Virus record (IMG/VR): IMGVR_UViG_3300030104_007428
Location: 1-46,013 of that record
Strand: one strand, 5' to 3'
Origin: a virus
DNA: 46,013 bases
Positions 742 to 45,966 of the stretch are shown piece by piece. Position 1 is the first letter of the stretch. The number at the start of each line of letters is the position of its first letter. The translations under genes and the position numbers were made by a program. The notes beneath the pieces were generated by a model. The model made no database searches and was not told the origin of the DNA. It worked only from the letters and a program-made list of their open reading frames with translations.

Positions 742-2325
742 CTATCCTTTAAAAATCCAAACAAAATCTTTCATTTGTTCTTTTGCTTCTAATTGTCTTT
801 CCTTTATATCTGAACCATATCCATTCATACCTTTGATCGAAGTATTCATTGTAGTTTTGTTTAGATACATAGAATTTAAGATTGCTTTTTTGTATTCTAC
901 ATCTCGCTCATTTACTTGAAGTGCTGTGTCTCTTACCCAACAAGCAATAGCTAAAGACATAACCAAATCGTCATGGTAAGATCGCATGGCTTGAGGTTTT
1001 CCATTTTTCCAAATGAAAGTTTTAAATTCATGAAAAGTTCTTGACGAATAAATATTCAACATTTTATTTCTTATAAACTCCTCAAGTTTTGCCACAATCA
1101 AAGGACGAGTCTTCGTAGAGGTTGTAAAACCCGCTATTGCTCCGTCCATAGCTTCGCCTTGAACAGATTCAACAAACTCATGTGTCGATTTAATTGAGTA
1201 ATAAAGATTTGGATATCCAAGAGTAATTAGTTTTTCCAAGATGGATATGCCAATTCCGTTGTTTTCGACAACTAAAAGGCAGTTTCCATATTCTGTACCT
1301 GCTGAATATAACATCTGGGCATACATATCTAAATTTGGTTTCCCTTGATACTCTGCGACTATCTCCATAGTTTCTAATTTTAAAACATGAAATACAGAAT
1401 TATCAGCACCATCGCCTCTCGCAACATCAGCAACAAGAAGATAAGTGTTTCCTTCTTCAAACTTCTCCCAAATCCAAAAGTTTCTATCGTATCCTGTTCT
1501 ATATACTGGTTCTCTGATTGTTTGATTTAACCAAGCAATATCATCGGGATGAATTACTGTATCGCCTGATGTATTAAAATTACATTCTAACTCTTGAGCT
1601 ATTTGTCTCCGAGACATATTCTTTGTCTCTTTCTCAAACCATTCTTGATTTCTTTCGGGATGAACATCCCAAGGAAGACACACAGGGTGGAAATCATTCT
1701 CTTTATTGTCGGCATCGACATAAGTTTTATGAAACCAGTTACCAACACCATTTGGAGTTGATAGGGCAATACAACGACCACCAGTTGATAGAGTGGGATA
1801 TAGACCAGTCCAGAGTTCTTTTAGGCCATCGACGTGTGCGGCCTCATCAATTACCAAAAGCGAAAGAGCTTCAGAACGACCAGCATCACCAGATGTCGAA
1901 GCGGCTTTAATTTGAGAACCATTTGATAATTCAAATGATGTTCTATTGTCAATTGAAATTGTAGCCACTTGCAACCAAGGTGGCAAATTCTTCATAATAT
2001 GTTTTACTTTCTTTACCAAGTTGGCAGCGGTCGCAAATTTAGTTGCGATAACCAAAACATTTTTATCACGATGAAACAACATAAGCCACACACAATATGC
2101 GGCTGTAATAGTTGAAATCCCCAACTGTCGGGCTTTTAGGATAACTGTAAAGCGGAAATCGTTATAGTCGTTTAATAAATCATCTTGATACGGATAAGTT
2201 TTAAACGGAACAAGACCTTTGAGCGGGTGTGAGATCCTACAAAAATTGTTTGTAAAGTAAACCGGATCTTTTCCGCACTTAAGGATTTCTTTTACAATCT
2301 CCTTTTTTGAGAGTTTAAAAGACAT
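742..2325 (-). CDS. Large terminase subunit (ATPase-nuclease), gp17-like
   Basis: This 527-aa protein is the DNA-packaging motor that docks on the portal, translocates genomic DNA with ATP and cuts the concatemer. The N-terminal ATPase shows an adenine-binding Q motif (KTYPYQ, residues 42-47), a Walker A of the deviant type KARQLGIST (64-72), Walker B LLVIDE (156-161) and coupling motif LSTPNG (188-193). The C-terminal RNase H-fold nuclease shows D300 in VADVARGDG, E364 in VVENNG and D452/D453 in YHDDL. The P-loop has Ile-Ser where T4 gp17 has Lys-Thr, a variant seen in other phage terminases that is not expected to inactivate it. The start ATG overlaps the previous stop (TAATG), implying translational coupling with the 180-aa gene. 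Length is slightly below T4 gp17 (610 aa). Confidence 0.95.
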   Translation of the reverse strand: MSFKLSKKEIVKEILKCGKDPVYFTNNFCRISHPLKGLVPFKTYPYQDDLLNDYNDFRFTVILKARQLGISTITAAYCVWLMLFHRDKNVLVIATKFATAANLVKKVKHIMKNLPPWLQVATISIDNRTSFELSNGSQIKAASTSGDAGRSEALSLLVIDEAAHVDGLKELWTGLYPTLSTGGRCIALSTPNGVGNWFHKTYVDADNKENDFHPVCLPWDVHPERNQEWFEKETKNMSRRQIAQELECNFNTSGDTVIHPDDIAWLNQTIREPVYRTGYDRNFWIWEKFEEGNTYLLVADVARGDGADNSVFHVLKLETMEIVAEYQGKPNLDMYAQMLYSAGTEYGNCLLVVENNGIGISILEKLITLGYPNLYYSIKSTHEFVESVQGEAMDGAIAGFTTSTKTRPLIVAKLEEFIRNKMLNIYSSRTFHEFKTFIWKNGKPQAMRSYHDDLVMSLAIACWVRDTALQVNERDVEYKKAILNSMYLNKTTMNTSIKGMNGYGSDIKERQLEAKEQMKDFVWIFKG

Positions 2326-2974: not shown

Positions 2975-3348
2975 TTTTTAGGTCTCCATCCTTTTTTCCA
3001 TCTATCTTCCCGGCCTTCAATCCATTGTATATAGCACTTTTCACAACAACCAAACTTCGTCATATAGACATCATCGTTTGATTTAAAAGAGTATGTATTA
3101 CAGACCGGACAAGATCGCTCGGATTCTTTATTAAGTAGTTTTTTGGGAATAAAAACCCCATTTACTTCTTCTCGATCAAAATCTTCTTTATCTTCATAGT
3201 ATTTGTGTGTTTCTTTTAATTGAGCCAAATACTCTTTTTCTTTCTCATCTGTCCAATTGCTCTTGGGGTGTTGTATTGTTTCTTCACCATATTTCTTCGC
3301 AATTGCTTTCTCAACTTTTACTGTATAATTCGGATCCTTTTTGCTCAT
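2971..3348 (-). CDS. Small zinc-ribbon protein, 125 aa, unknown function
   Basis: The start is placed at the internal ATG at 3348 (MSKKDPNYTVKVEK). It overlaps the previous stop as ATGA, whereas the longer frame begins inside the previous gene with a Cys/Trp-rich, unlikely extension. The N-terminal half is charged and helical. The C-terminal third carries CPVC and, about 20 residues later, CCEKC, a four-cysteine zinc ribbon typical of small phage nucleic-acid-binding or scaffold proteins. It ends in a very basic, Trp-rich tail (EDRWKKGWRPKK). The gene is coupled on both sides within the pre-terminase cluster. No catalytic domain is visible and I cannot name the family. Confidence 0.75.
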   Translation of the reverse strand: MSKKDPNYTVKVEKAIAKKYGEETIQHPKSNWTDEKEKEYLAQLKETHKYYEDKEDFDREEVNGVFIPKKLLNKESERSCPVCNTYSFKSNDDVYMTKFGCCEKCYIQWIEGREDRWKKGWRPKK

Positions 3349-3776
3349 CGCAACCCCGGTGCGACAGCATACATAATGCCGATTGCTGCCCCTGCACCAA
3401 CTGTGAAGCCGCCAATGGCCCACCAATGGGCATTTGAAGGGCGAACATACTTTTCTAAGCTCTGGATATGTTGGTCTCGAATATTAATCACGTCGGTAAA
3501 TCGTTGATTGTCTGCTTCTGATTTAGCATACAGAATATCGTATCTATATTGTTCTTCGGCTTTTACTTGGCCGATCTCAAAATCAACTCTTAATTTACAC
3601 TCAAGGTTTTGGAATTGACTATCAACAATAATCTTGGACACAGCAGCATTGTTAAAAAGCCGCCCATCAAATGGTGCGACTTCGCCTTGTTTTATGTTAC
3701 TAAATTTAGGTTTCTCATCTTCACCGTGTGCGGCAGAAGACCAAGTAAGCAGTGTGCCCATAAGTAAATACTTCAT
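3345..3776 (-). CDS. Exported membrane-associated protein, possible spanin-type lysis protein
   Basis: This 143-aa protein starts MKYLLMGTLLTWSSAAHG, a short signal peptide with a plausible signal-peptidase I site after AHG. It then has 'GEVAPFDGRLFNNAAV', a proline/aspartate/glycine motif I associate with small phage periplasmic (Rz- or holin-accessory-like) proteins. A charged stretch of coiled-coil character follows (about residues 75-112), and a C-terminal hydrophobic segment (about 118-139) could be a membrane anchor. A role in envelope disruption at lysis is inferred from this layout and from the holin-like and coiled-coil membrane proteins just upstream. It sits directly behind a consensus sigma70 promoter (3806-3834), so it may be transcribed apart from the genes to its right. 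It could instead be an unrelated envelope protein. Confidence 0.7.
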   Translation of the reverse strand: MKYLLMGTLLTWSSAAHGEDEKPKFSNIKQGEVAPFDGRLFNNAAVSKIIVDSQFQNLECKLRVDFEIGQVKAEEQYRYDILYAKSEADNQRFTDVINIRDQHIQSLEKYVRPSNAHWWAIGGFTVGAGAAIGIMYAVAPGLR

Positions 3777-3805: not shown

Positions 3806-3834
3806 ATTATAACATATTTTTTTAAACTTGTCAA
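3806..3834 (-). promoter_or_regulatory. Consensus sigma70 promoter, extended -10
   Basis: On the minus strand TTGACA (3829-3834) and TATAAT (3806-3811) are separated by exactly 17 nt, with TG one base before the -10 (TGTTATAAT). All twelve hexamer positions match consensus. It overlaps the tail end of nothing but intergenic DNA and lies about 30 nt before the ATG of the exported protein at 3776. It would start a transcript running into the zinc-ribbon, terminase and portal genes. Confidence 0.9.
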
Positions 3835-8551: not shown

Positions 8552-10006
8552 CTATCGTTGAGGTTTCAGTTTTTTCATTAACTCTGCTGCTGTCTTCTTG
8601 TATTCTTCTACATCAGGCCAACCTTGTTCGGGAAACATAATATTGTTTGGAGCATAATTAACCAACGGTATTGAAAAATCAGTATACCGATGTTTAGTAA
8701 ACATAACCTTTGACAATTCTCCTGTCAAGATCATATCAATGATTTTTCTTGTAGTTTTTAAAGGTATTCTCTCACCTGTTCCATAGCTGCCGCCTGTCCA
8801 GCCGGTATTTACAAGCCAACAATTTACATTGTGCTTTTCTATTTTTTCTTTTAAAAGATCAGAATACACTTCAACATTTAGAGGCATGAAAGGTTGGCCA
8901 AAACAAGATGAAAATGTTGGAACCGGTTCTTTGACTCCTTTTTCCGTTCCAGCAACTTTAGCAGTATAACCTATTTTAAATTGTTGCACGGCTTCTTCGG
9001 AAGTTAGTTTTATCACAGGAGGTAAGACCCCAAAAGCATCACAAGTCAGCATAATTATGTTTTTTGGATGTTTATTAACATACCCTGTTATATGTGAATT
9101 AGGTATCACATCTGTTGAATAAGAAGCTCTACCATTTTCTGTAATGGAAGAATTATGAAAATTTGCAATTCCTCTATTATCAATCATAACATTTTCTAAA
9201 ATTGTTCCAACTGTTTTACAAGCACTCCAAATCTCTGGTTCGTTATCTTCAGATAAATTTAATGTCTTGGCATAACAACCACCTTCGATATTTGCAAGAC
9301 CATCATCTGTCCAAAGATGTTCATCATCACCTATCAACACTCTATTTGGATCGGCAGATAAAGTTGTCTTTCCAGTACCTGACAGACCAAAGAAAATAGT
9401 TGCGTTTTCATTGCTTTTGTTAACATTGACAGAACAATGCATTGGTAAAAAACCCTTACTCGGTGTTAAATAATTAATAAGAGTGAAAGCAGCTTTTTTA
9501 ATTTCACCAGAATAATAAGTCCCAGAAATAAGAATTAATTTTTCCTCAACACTTATCATCACTTTTGGTTCATCTAAAAATGATGGAAAATGAATAATAG
9601 TATAAGTGTCTTTTATATTTGGCATCTCAACCATTTGTTCTGCTGTGATAAACATATTACGAACAAACTGAGAATGTCGAGCATGTTCTGTGAAAACTTG
9701 AAATCCAATAGAATAATTTGGATCTCTAATCAGAACAACATCTTGCAAATAAGAATCCTTTTCAGTCAATAATTTAAGAAACTTACGCTTCATTTTTCCA
9801 AAAGCACCTTTTGACATTTTATTATTTTGTGACCAATCTACTTTGTTCTTTGTAAATCTATCGCTAACAATATGTTTTGCAGTTGGACAGCGACCTGTAT
9901 ATTCACCTGTATAAGTGACGAGTACTCCATCTGCGGTTAAGGTGCAGCCCTCTTTTTCTACTGCTATTTCTAAAAGTTTTGGTGTTTCTAAATTTCTATA
10001 AATCAT
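8552..10006 (-). CDS. pckA: Phosphoenolpyruvate carboxykinase, ATP type
   Basis: The 484-aa product matches bacterial ATP-dependent PEP carboxykinase, which interconverts oxaloacetate + ATP and PEP + CO2 + ADP. Conserved sites are present (E. coli residue in brackets): R39 in TGRCPTAK [R65], Y165 and K170/K171 in GTYYSGEIKK [Y207, K212/K213], H190 in PMHCSVN [H232], kinase P-loop GLSGTGKTT 207-215 [248-256], metal-binding D227/D228 in IGDDEH [D268/D269] and R293 [R333]. The later blocks CDAFGVLPP and GYTAKVAGTEKG are intact. It is about 55 residues shorter than the E. coli enzyme, losing roughly 26 at the N-terminus plus short loops, and looks catalytically complete. Its ATG overlaps the primase stop (ATGA) behind a GAGGA site, and base use matches its neighbours. 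It therefore belongs to the phage and is not an assembly artefact. Its use during infection is not shown by sequence. Confidence 0.96.
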   Translation of the reverse strand: MIYRNLETPKLLEIAVEKEGCTLTADGVLVTYTGEYTGRCPTAKHIVSDRFTKNKVDWSQNNKMSKGAFGKMKRKFLKLLTEKDSYLQDVVLIRDPNYSIGFQVFTEHARHSQFVRNMFITAEQMVEMPNIKDTYTIIHFPSFLDEPKVMISVEEKLILISGTYYSGEIKKAAFTLINYLTPSKGFLPMHCSVNVNKSNENATIFFGLSGTGKTTLSADPNRVLIGDDEHLWTDDGLANIEGGCYAKTLNLSEDNEPEIWSACKTVGTILENVMIDNRGIANFHNSSITENGRASYSTDVIPNSHITGYVNKHPKNIIMLTCDAFGVLPPVIKLTSEEAVQQFKIGYTAKVAGTEKGVKEPVPTFSSCFGQPFMPLNVEVYSDLLKEKIEKHNVNCWLVNTGWTGGSYGTGERIPLKTTRKIIDMILTGELSKVMFTKHRYTDFSIPLVNYAPNNIMFPEQGWPDVEEYKKTAAELMKKLKPQR

Positions 10007-10955: not shown

Positions 10956-10983
10956 AACATAACATATTATATTATTTTGTCAA
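10956..10983 (-). promoter_or_regulatory. Probable sigma70-type promoter for primase-pckA-nuclease
   Basis: On the minus strand a perfect TTGACA (10978-10983) is followed after 16 nt by TATGTT (10956-10961), four of six matches, preceded by an extended TG. It overlaps the end of the nucleotidyltransferase gene. The predicted RNA would begin roughly ten bases before the primase ATG, with GGAGG near its 5' end. Weaker than the sites at 3806 and 13039, but it shares their A/T-rich spacer and ATGTTAT core. Confidence 0.55.
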
Positions 10984-12485: not shown

Positions 12486-13031
12486 TCAAGAATTTAGGAT
12501 TATTCCCGCTAGAGCAACAACAACAGCATCGGCTTTATCATCTGTTCCCGGTTTAGGATTTCCATGTCTTGTAAGATCGTAATTAAAATCTTCTGGATAT
12601 TCATTTTTAACCCACTCAATGACTTTCTTTTTTGTGTCTTCGCCTCTTTTGATCTTGAGGCCAACTGCACCTCTCGCTTTATTTGCAGCAATTAATTCAG
12701 CGTCAAAGCCAAACTGCTTTCTTACCATATAAGAAATCATGCCGTTAAATCGTTGAAGTTTACTCATCGTCATGGCAGTTGTCTTTCCACCAGAGAACAT
12801 CATAAACGGAGATTCAATATATACTTTGGTGATATTGTATCTATTTTTCTTATTGATATAATTTTCTGAATTTAAAGAAGACAGGATATGTTCTACGGCC
12901 AAACATCTTTCTTCTAATGAGGTTTTGTTATCTAATTTTATTGTTTCAGATTTTACGAGGTTTTTGTTAGTATCAAGTATAGATAACCCTAATTTACTTG
13001 TGCTAACATCCAAGCCTAAAATATAATTCAT
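12486..13031 (-). CDS. RuvC-like Holliday junction resolvase (RNase H fold)
   Basis: The start is ATG 13031, placing the first beta strand (ILGLDVSTSKLG) at residue 4. The upstream ATG lies in the promoter. The 181-aa protein has D8 in the first strand, E73 in YIESP, and the closing acidic cluster D164/D165 and D168 in PGTDDKADAV. These are the four-carboxylate arrangement of RuvC-type resolvases. It would cut branched DNA made during recombination-dependent replication before packaging, the job done in T4 by the unrelated endonuclease VII. A consensus sigma70 promoter ends 7 nt before the ATG and there is no Shine-Dalgarno site, so the message from it would be leaderless. Confidence 0.88.
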   Translation of the reverse strand: MNYILGLDVSTSKLGLSILDTNKNLVKSETIKLDNKTSLEERCLAVEHILSSLNSENYINKKNRYNITKVYIESPFMMFSGGKTTAMTMSKLQRFNGMISYMVRKQFGFDAELIAANKARGAVGLKIKRGEDTKKKVIEWVKNEYPEDFNYDLTRHGNPKPGTDDKADAVVVALAGIILNS

Positions 13032-13038
13032 AAGTGTT

Positions 13039-13067
13039 ATTATAACACAAACCTTATCAAATGTCAA
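13039..13067 (-). promoter_or_regulatory. Consensus sigma70 promoter for RuvC-like gene, extended -10
   Basis: TTGACA (13062-13067) and TATAAT (13039-13044) on the minus strand are separated by 17 nt, with the extended motif TGTTATAAT. Every hexamer position matches. It overlaps the last codons of the tail gene at 13057-14280. Only 7 nt separate the -10 from the resolvase ATG, so transcription should begin at or within a base or two of the start codon. Confidence 0.9.
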
Positions 13068-45279: not shown

Positions 45280-45966
45280 TTAAATTTTACCATTATCCCA
45301 ATCAGCCTTGAATAAGAAATATCGTTTTCGTAGTTTATTCAACTGAGAAACGATTTGTTTTGTATTGAGACCAGTAAGTTCTCTTAAATATAAGTACACA
45401 GCTTTTTTATTAAAAATTTCTATATCATCAACTGAATTAAGAATGGTTCTAACTGCATTATAAACCTTTCGTTCATTCTCTTTCATATCGTTGGTTTCCC
45501 AACATTCAATCTCAGACCACAAAGATTTCCAAAAATCTTTAAACTCTTGTTCCGCTGGGAAAGGATTGTATGTGATGATTTTCTCTTCATCTACTTGTTT
45601 CAAAGCATCTTCATAATCAACCTCACGTTTTGCTCGCTTGGTTGTTTGTTTTACTTTGTGAATAAACCAATTCTTTGTGATAACAGAGAAGTAAGAAAAT
45701 GCTTTGGATCCACGATTTGGATCATATTTTGAAAGTATAGTGGTTAACCATATCTTACACTCATCTCTTAATTCATCTATATTTGGAAGAGTTGTAAACT
45801 TATATGTATAAACAATCTTATCGACCATTTCATCAAATGCTGGTTGTATCCAGTCTACATATAATTTAGTTCTTATTACATTGTCACTTGTGCTGCAATA
45901 TTTAATTATCGCGTCTTCGTGAACCTGCGTAAAATACATTCTCTTCGTTGATTTGCGTCTCGCCAT
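45280..45966 (-). CDS. Late-transcription sigma factor, gp55-like
   Basis: The 228-aa protein has the compact sigma region-2-like core of T4 gp55. 'DELRDECKIWLTTILSKYDPN' is followed by 'RGSKAFSYFSVITKNWFIHK', where the aromatic FSYF…TKNWF stretch corresponds to the -10 recognition helix. A charged linker and a C-terminal helix-turn-helix-like part (LNTKQIVSQLNKLRKRYFL) complete it. gp55 replaces sigma70 on host RNA polymerase and reads the single TATAAATA-type late element with help of gp33 and the sliding clamp. The start at 45966 has an AGGAGA site nine nt upstream. The length is near T4 gp55 (185 aa). It is the first complete gene of the window and would activate the late genes downstream. 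Confidence 0.88.
   Translation of the reverse strand: MARRKSTKRMYFTQVHEDAIIKYCSTSDNVIRTKLYVDWIQPAFDEMVDKIVYTYKFTTLPNIDELRDECKIWLTTILSKYDPNRGSKAFSYFSVITKNWFIHKVKQTTKRAKREVDYEDALKQVDEEKIITYNPFPAEQEFKDFWKSLWSEIECWETNDMKENERKVYNAVRTILNSVDDIEIFNKKAVYLYLRELTGLNTKQIVSQLNKLRKRYFLFKADWDNGKI

What the first reader, a model, noticed from the sequence alone, without database searches (positions are those of the whole stretch)
8552..10006. Complete ATP-type PEP carboxykinase embedded in a phage replication operon
All substrate, metal and P-loop residues of PckA are present. The gene is coupled by ATGA overlap to primase upstream and 8 nt from the Mre11-Rad50 gene downstream, so it is a true phage gene. 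Phages often carry metabolic genes, but a central gluconeogenic/anaplerotic carboxykinase is not one of the common ones I know. It could redirect oxaloacetate to PEP to feed pentose and nucleotide synthesis. Running in reverse, it could fix CO2 and make ATP from PEP. Placement with primase suggests expression with DNA synthesis.
Basis: partly seen in the sequence, partly recalled or inferred. Interest (0 to 1): 0.9.

Follow-up and report, generated by a model that had tools for sequence, protein, structure and literature searches.

The report
Phage-encoded PEP carboxykinase, virus-only clade
Uncultured large phages carry their own intact PEP carboxykinase, the enzyme that commits carbon to making sugars from organic acids; it forms a virus-only branch, is kept under strong selection, and probably helps an infected cell make building blocks for phage DNA.

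Summary
Window 8552-10006 encodes a 484-aa ATP-type PckA (PF01293, 568.5 bits against a 26.5 cut-off) with every catalytic residue checked. It overlaps the primase gene by ATGA and ends 8 nt before an SbcD-SbcC fusion.

It is a real phage gene. The order primase-pckA-sbcDC recurs in three independently assembled relatives (PckA 63-79% identical). A wider IMG/VR scan found 77 viral contigs with PckA, many 75-285 kb. The window's protein sits in a virus-only clade (18 tree rows, support 100/99); a second virus-only clade and a huge-phage group also occur. Catalytic residues are essentially unchanged in 63 viral-contig rows; dN/dS is 0.02-0.17.

PHROGs has no PckA family. I found no convincing isolate phage with this clade, and one paper that merely lists pckA among viral AMGs.

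Most likely it runs oxaloacetate + ATP to PEP + CO2, feeding gluconeogenesis and pentose/PRPP for nucleotides. Two related huge-phage records pair PckA with fructose-1,6-bisphosphatase, one also with PRPP synthetase. A conserved sigma-70-type promoter precedes primase. Direction in the window's own phage is inferred; aspartate supply by carboxylation, or PEP for phage glycans, remain open.

The parts
8552..10006 (-). pckA, ATP-type phosphoenolpyruvate carboxykinase, 484 aa; P-loop GLSGTGKTTLS at residues 207-217, metal residues D227/D228, K170/K171, H190
   Evidence: Pfam PF01293 568.5 bits; residues; dN/dS 0.08-0.17 against L013 and L014
10003..10965 (-). DnaG-type primase (zinc ribbon + catalytic core); its stop overlaps the pckA start (ATGA)
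   Evidence: PHROG 47 DNA primase 144.8 bits; PF08275/PF01807
5376..8543 (-). SbcD-SbcC (Mre11-Rad50) fusion, 1055 aa, 8 nt downstream of pckA
   Evidence: PF00149 + AAA_23; PHROGs 77 and 100
10956..10983 (-). sigma-70-like promoter TTGACA-16-TATGTT (10/12, extended -10) just before primase
   Evidence: scan; same arrangement before primase in L002, L014 and G003
13039..13067 (-). perfect sigma-70 promoter TTGACA-17-TATAAT with TG (12/12) before the RuvC-like gene that heads the block
   Evidence: kept 12/12 at the same place in L002 and G003; 0.15 such sites expected on this strand by a Markov model
12486..13067 (-). RuvC-like Holliday junction resolvase, first gene of the block (true start probably inside the listed ORF)
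   Evidence: PHROG 159, 57 bits
10980..11651 (-). cytidylyltransferase-like protein, upstream of primase
   Evidence: PF01467, PHROG 395
742..2325 (-). terminase large subunit (phage hallmark)
   Evidence: PF03237, PHROG 2; nearest isolates Flavobacterium phage immuto 47.6%, Microcystis phage Mel-JY01 43%

Best explanation
The gene makes a working phage PEP carboxykinase. It is transcribed with primase and SbcCD from host-type (sigma-70) promoters while phage DNA is replicated. It catalyses oxaloacetate + ATP -> PEP + CO2 + ADP, the committed step from TCA intermediates into gluconeogenesis, so that a host living on amino or organic acids can make pentose phosphate/PRPP (and sugar nucleotides) for phage DNA and glycans. 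Shown here: enzyme family, active-site residues, phage context, conserved operon and promoter sequences, purifying selection, virus-only clade. Inferred: activity, reaction direction, metabolic sink, timing of expression.
For: Family and catalytic residues; residues essentially invariant in 63 viral-contig rows. dN/dS 0.02-0.17 in 14 viral pairs. Same gene order in L002/L005, L003 and G003 from separate assemblies. Terminase on 17 of 46 other PckA records searched (16 over the cut-off), 13 of them clade A. Virus-only clade A 100/99. Huge-phage records W01 (636 kb) and G045 pair PckA with FBPase, the other dedicated gluconeogenic step; W01 and clade B G046 have PRPP synthetase; clade A G031 has a TalC-type transaldolase and by eye an RpiB-like gene. 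Nucleotide genes (class II RNR, ThyX, dUTPase, IMPDH, PurA) on the same genomes. Conserved sigma-70 promoter sequences.
Against: No FBPase, PRPP synthetase or transaldolase was found in the window's own contig or its closest relatives (46, 75 and 185 kb records), so direction there rests on analogy. FBPase occurs only with clade C, a different PckA lineage. PckA is reversible and in some anaerobes carboxylates. Nucleotide genes are also common in PckA-less relatives (PurA 9/28 against 5/24). No expression or enzyme data; host unknown.
Confidence: 0.62

Rival explanations
1. The phage PckA runs in the carboxylating direction: PEP + CO2 + ADP -> oxaloacetate + ATP, giving aspartate for purine (PurA step) and pyrimidine synthesis, plus ATP.
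For: Several PckA phages also carry adenylosuccinate synthetase, which consumes aspartate (9/28 records), and glutamine synthetase (8/28 records against 1/32 PckA-less relatives; Fisher p 0.009, but many of the 8 are close kin).
Against: PurA is not clearly enriched (5/24 in PckA-less relatives). ATP-PckA is normally decarboxylating in aerobic bacteria (established knowledge). FBPase and PRPP synthetase partners point the other way.
Confidence: 0.17
2. The enzyme makes PEP chiefly for phage-directed glycans: PEP is the direct substrate of nonulosonic-acid and KDO synthases.
For: The closest long relative G001 has two CMP-sugar synthetase-like genes (PF02348), a class III aminotransferase and a sugar nucleotidyltransferase in a glycan cluster; the other large PckA genomes read also carry many sugar genes.
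Against: No convincing NeuB or KdsA-like sequence was found in the loci held (crude motif search), and G001 is incomplete.
Confidence: 0.1
3. The gene is a recent host pickup or assembly chimera with no role.
For: Phages do pick up host genes; some PckA on IMG/VR contigs (L036, L037, L040, L042/L083) does nest with bacterial PckA.
Against: Same context in four independent assemblies; at most 47% identity to the sampled bacterial PckA, versus 79% to the nearest phage; low dN/dS; virus-only clade.
Confidence: 0.03
4. The protein has been turned to a non-metabolic use (regulatory or scaffold role near primase/SbcCD) while keeping the fold.
For: It is shorter than host PckA (about 484 against 520-540 aa), scores below NCBI's TIGR00224 equivalog cut-off (495 against 590), and sits between replication genes.
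Against: Substrate, metal and nucleotide residues are all kept across the viral clades, which a non-catalytic role would not demand; in other phages the gene is not next to replication genes. No match in the anti-phage defence library.
Confidence: 0.06

Closest known systems
Bacterial ATP-dependent PEP carboxykinase (PckA; E. coli 1AQ2/1AYL, Thermus 1J3B, alphaproteobacterial PckA)
   Same: Whole-length homology (phmmer E 9e-117 to Thermus 1J3B); all active-site residues identical
   Different: 482-492 aa in nearly all clade A members; lacks N- and C-terminal ends and a 9-residue loop; at most 47% identical to sampled bacterial PckA; below the TIGR00224 equivalog cut-off; encoded by phages
Cyanophage and other phage auxiliary metabolic genes that feed pentose phosphate/nucleotide synthesis (TalC, Zwf, Gnd; from general knowledge)
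   Same: Host-type central carbon enzyme on a lytic-type phage beside nucleotide genes
   Different: Acts at the TCA-gluconeogenesis junction rather than in the pentose phosphate pathway; no isolate phage found with this clade
pckA listed as a viral AMG in trench sediments (PMC12448302)
   Same: Same KEGG gene name on virus contigs
   Different: In the passages found there it is one name in a gene list, with a general sentence on its function and no sequences, tree or context (main text only; supplements not read)
PEP carboxykinase in environmental giant viruses of eukaryotes (Mimiviridae; reviewed in PMC9270025)
   Same: Virus-encoded PEPCK alongside FBPase as gluconeogenesis genes
   Different: That review gives EC 4.1.1.32 (GTP-type) for one data set; eukaryotic hosts; here ATP-type in tailed phages
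PckA of the 636-kb uncultured huge phage LR756504 (clade C)
   Same: Phage-encoded ATP-type PckA, 42% identical to the window's
   Different: Full bacterial length (524 aa), different tree position, other gene context, paired with FBPase and PRPP synthetase on the same genome

Membership tests
ATP-dependent PEP carboxykinase (PF01293) | Profile match over the curated cut-off across the full length | tested here: met
   568.5 bits against 26.5, residues 2-447, profile 3-456 of 465
ATP-dependent PEP carboxykinase (PF01293) | Substrate, metal and P-loop residues (E. coli R65, Y207, K212, K213, H232, S250-T256, D268, D269, R333, R449) | tested here: met
   All present; essentially invariant in 63 viral rows (one gap at R449, T255S in two)
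PckA equivalog TIGR00224 (NCBIfam) | Score over the curated equivalog cut-off of 590.05 bits | tested here: not met
   495.1 bits; the clade C huge-phage protein reaches 694.3. This is an annotation threshold, not a catalytic criterion; subfamily NF006821 is passed (392 against 369).
ATP-dependent PEP carboxykinase (PF01293) | ATP-dependent oxaloacetate decarboxylation in vitro | not testable with these tools
   Needs purified enzyme
Phage auxiliary metabolic gene | Encoded within a genuine virus genome, flanked by viral genes | tested here: met
   Terminase, baseplate and primase genes in the window; synteny in relatives; terminase on 17 of 46 other PckA records
Phage auxiliary metabolic gene | Kept under selection as a functional enzyme | tested here: met
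   dN/dS 0.02-0.17
Phage auxiliary metabolic gene | Expressed in infection and changes host metabolism | not testable with these tools
   No isolate or transcriptome at hand; only promoter sequences

The most novel reading that the evidence does not exclude
Gluconeogenesis is a recurrent target of large phages of organotrophic bacteria: a virus-only, streamlined PEPCK lineage, and at least one other separately acquired PckA, take over the TCA-to-sugar junction, as cyanophages take over the pentose phosphate pathway. Some huge phages encode both dedicated gluconeogenic steps (PckA and FBPase) plus PRPP synthetase.
Probability: 0.5. Interest if true: 0.75.

Novelty: new variant of a known kind. 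Interest (0 to 1): 0.62.

Why it matters
Phage reprogramming of carbon flow is known best for cyanophages, whose hosts make sugars from CO2. A phage-owned PEPCK kept in a virus-only clade would be the matching strategy for phages of bacteria that eat organic and amino acids and must make ribose by gluconeogenesis. It gives a single-gene, testable handle on whether lytic phages limit or open that junction, and it adds a CO2-releasing viral enzyme to carbon budgets. The family is missing from PHROGs, so routine phage annotation with that library will not name it.

Tried and rejected
A frame break in the G003 copy turned out to be a run of Ns (assembly gap), not a mutation. T4-type late promoter TATAAATA is at chance frequency (8 against 6.3 expected). 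A PADLOC defence role for PckA: no match. A single origin of clades A and B: not rejected but not shown (AU p 0.17). PurA as a PckA-linked gene: not clearly enriched. NeuB/KdsA motif search: nothing convincing. Phage-database hits UPMK_1, the 515-582 kb Salmonella contigs and 1.5-3 kb fragments were set aside as likely host sequence (not each tested). IMG/VR loci L036, L037, L040, L042/L083 set aside as host-like. The genome-contig scan with the window protein gave one alphaproteobacterial hit only.

Full report
OBSERVATION. The ORF at 8552-10006 is on the minus strand, 484 aa. Pfam PF01293 (ATP-type PEP carboxykinase) matches residues 2-447 at 568.5 bits against a cut-off of 26.5. Against E. 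coli PckA all checked substrate, metal and P-loop residues are kept. The start overlaps the primase stop by ATGA, and the stop lies 8 nt before an SbcD-SbcC fusion.

IT IS A PHAGE GENE. The window is a 46,013-base IMG/VR virus record with a T4-type terminase, baseplate and primase genes. The order primase-pckA-sbcDC recurs in L002/L005 (PckA 79%, two separate samples), L003 (64%) and the 185-kb G003 (63%). Among 80 IMG/VR loci found by SbcDC, 18 have primase directly next to SbcDC, 42 have other genes between or near, and one has PckA; none of 32 long relatives searched whole has PckA. Genes seen in that slot elsewhere include short Smr-like, thioredoxin-like and other ORFs (read by eye). So pckA looks like cargo in a variable slot of a conserved block. 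Nearest isolates by terminase are Flavobacterium phage immuto (47.6%) and Microcystis phage Mel-JY01 (43%); neither appears among PckA hits.

A WIDER VIRAL FAMILY. A profile-based scan found 77 IMG/VR loci with PckA. In the careful tree (75 rows, haloarchaeal outgroup) the window's protein lies in a virus-only clade A of 18 rows, support 100/99; clade B is 17 viral rows, 100/100; clade C is three huge-phage rows. Whether A and B share one viral origin is open (AU p 0.17). Viral clade A and B proteins are mostly 482-493 aa. Bacterial sampling was mainly Pseudomonadota plus one or two members of Bacillota, Fusobacteriota, Planctomycetota and Bacteroidota, and Thermus and Trypanosoma; the best bacterial identity is 47%. 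Catalytic positions are unchanged in the 63 viral-contig rows except one gap at R449 and T255S in two. dN/dS is 0.02-0.17 in the pairs where it could be computed.

EXPRESSION. A perfect extended sigma-70 promoter (TTGACA-17-TATAAT with TG) lies at 13067-13039 before the RuvC-like gene and is kept 12/12 in L002 and G003; a second, weaker one precedes primase in the window, L002, L014 and G003. This agrees with transcription of primase-pckA-sbcDC by host-type RNA polymerase. It is sequence evidence only.

HOW IT WORKS. The best reading is the ordinary PckA reaction in the decarboxylating direction, moving TCA carbon to PEP and on to sugars and ribose. Support: the huge-phage record LR756504 and its relative G045 carry FBPase as well as PckA; LR756504 and the clade B genome G046 carry PRPP synthetase; clade A G031 has a TalC-type transaldolase and, by eye, an RpiB-like gene. 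Class II RNR, ThyX, dUTPase, IMPDH and PurA genes occur on PckA genomes. Limits: none of the three sugar-side partners was found on the window, G001 or G003, and nucleotide genes are common in such phages anyway (PurA 9/28 against 5/24 in PckA-less relatives). Glutamine synthetase is found in 8/28 PckA records against 1/32 PckA-less relatives (p 0.009), but the records are not independent. Rivals: the carboxylating direction for aspartate, or PEP for acidic-sugar glycans, suggested by CMP-sugar synthetase-like genes in G001.

KNOWN OR NEW. PHROGs version 4 has no family that matches. NCBI's TIGR00224 equivalog cut-off is missed by the clade A and B proteins tested and passed by clade C. In the open-access library I found one study that lists pckA among viral AMGs (PMC12448302), a review noting PEPCK in environmental giant viruses (PMC9270025), and none that describes a phage PckA clade (PMC11360552 main text has no mention). 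Subscription journals and preprints were not searched, so priority is not proven. The enzyme is a known kind; the virus-only, shortened lineage and its breadth appear undescribed.

Noticed in passing
8600-9800: pckA is an island of lower DNA identity between the window and L002 (71-79% against mostly 80-95% in flanking genes; dS 1.59 against 0.56-0.72), as if the allele had been swapped by recombination.
   Followed up: partly
3806-3834: Second perfect sigma-70 extended -10 promoter (12/12) before the ORF 3345-3776.
   Followed up: no
45280-45966: Protein that by eye resembles a T4 gp55-type late sigma factor; no Pfam or PHROG match.
   Followed up: no
L087 / record G046 (270 kb): Clade B genome carries, read by eye, PorP/SprF-like and TonB/carboxypeptidase-D-like proteins typical of Bacteroidota, suggesting a Bacteroidota host.
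   Followed up: no
L061, L043, L050, L074 (clade B): A DNA methyltransferase-like gene lies directly upstream of pckA in clade B (ATGA overlap in L043 and L050); it recurs in 40 loci.
   Followed up: partly
L173:5280-6275, L191, L205 and others: Short (332-348 aa) adenylosuccinate synthetases in many of these large phages, with and without PckA; in the three read by eye the GD..KGK aspartate is kept, unlike what I recall of PurZ.
   Followed up: partly
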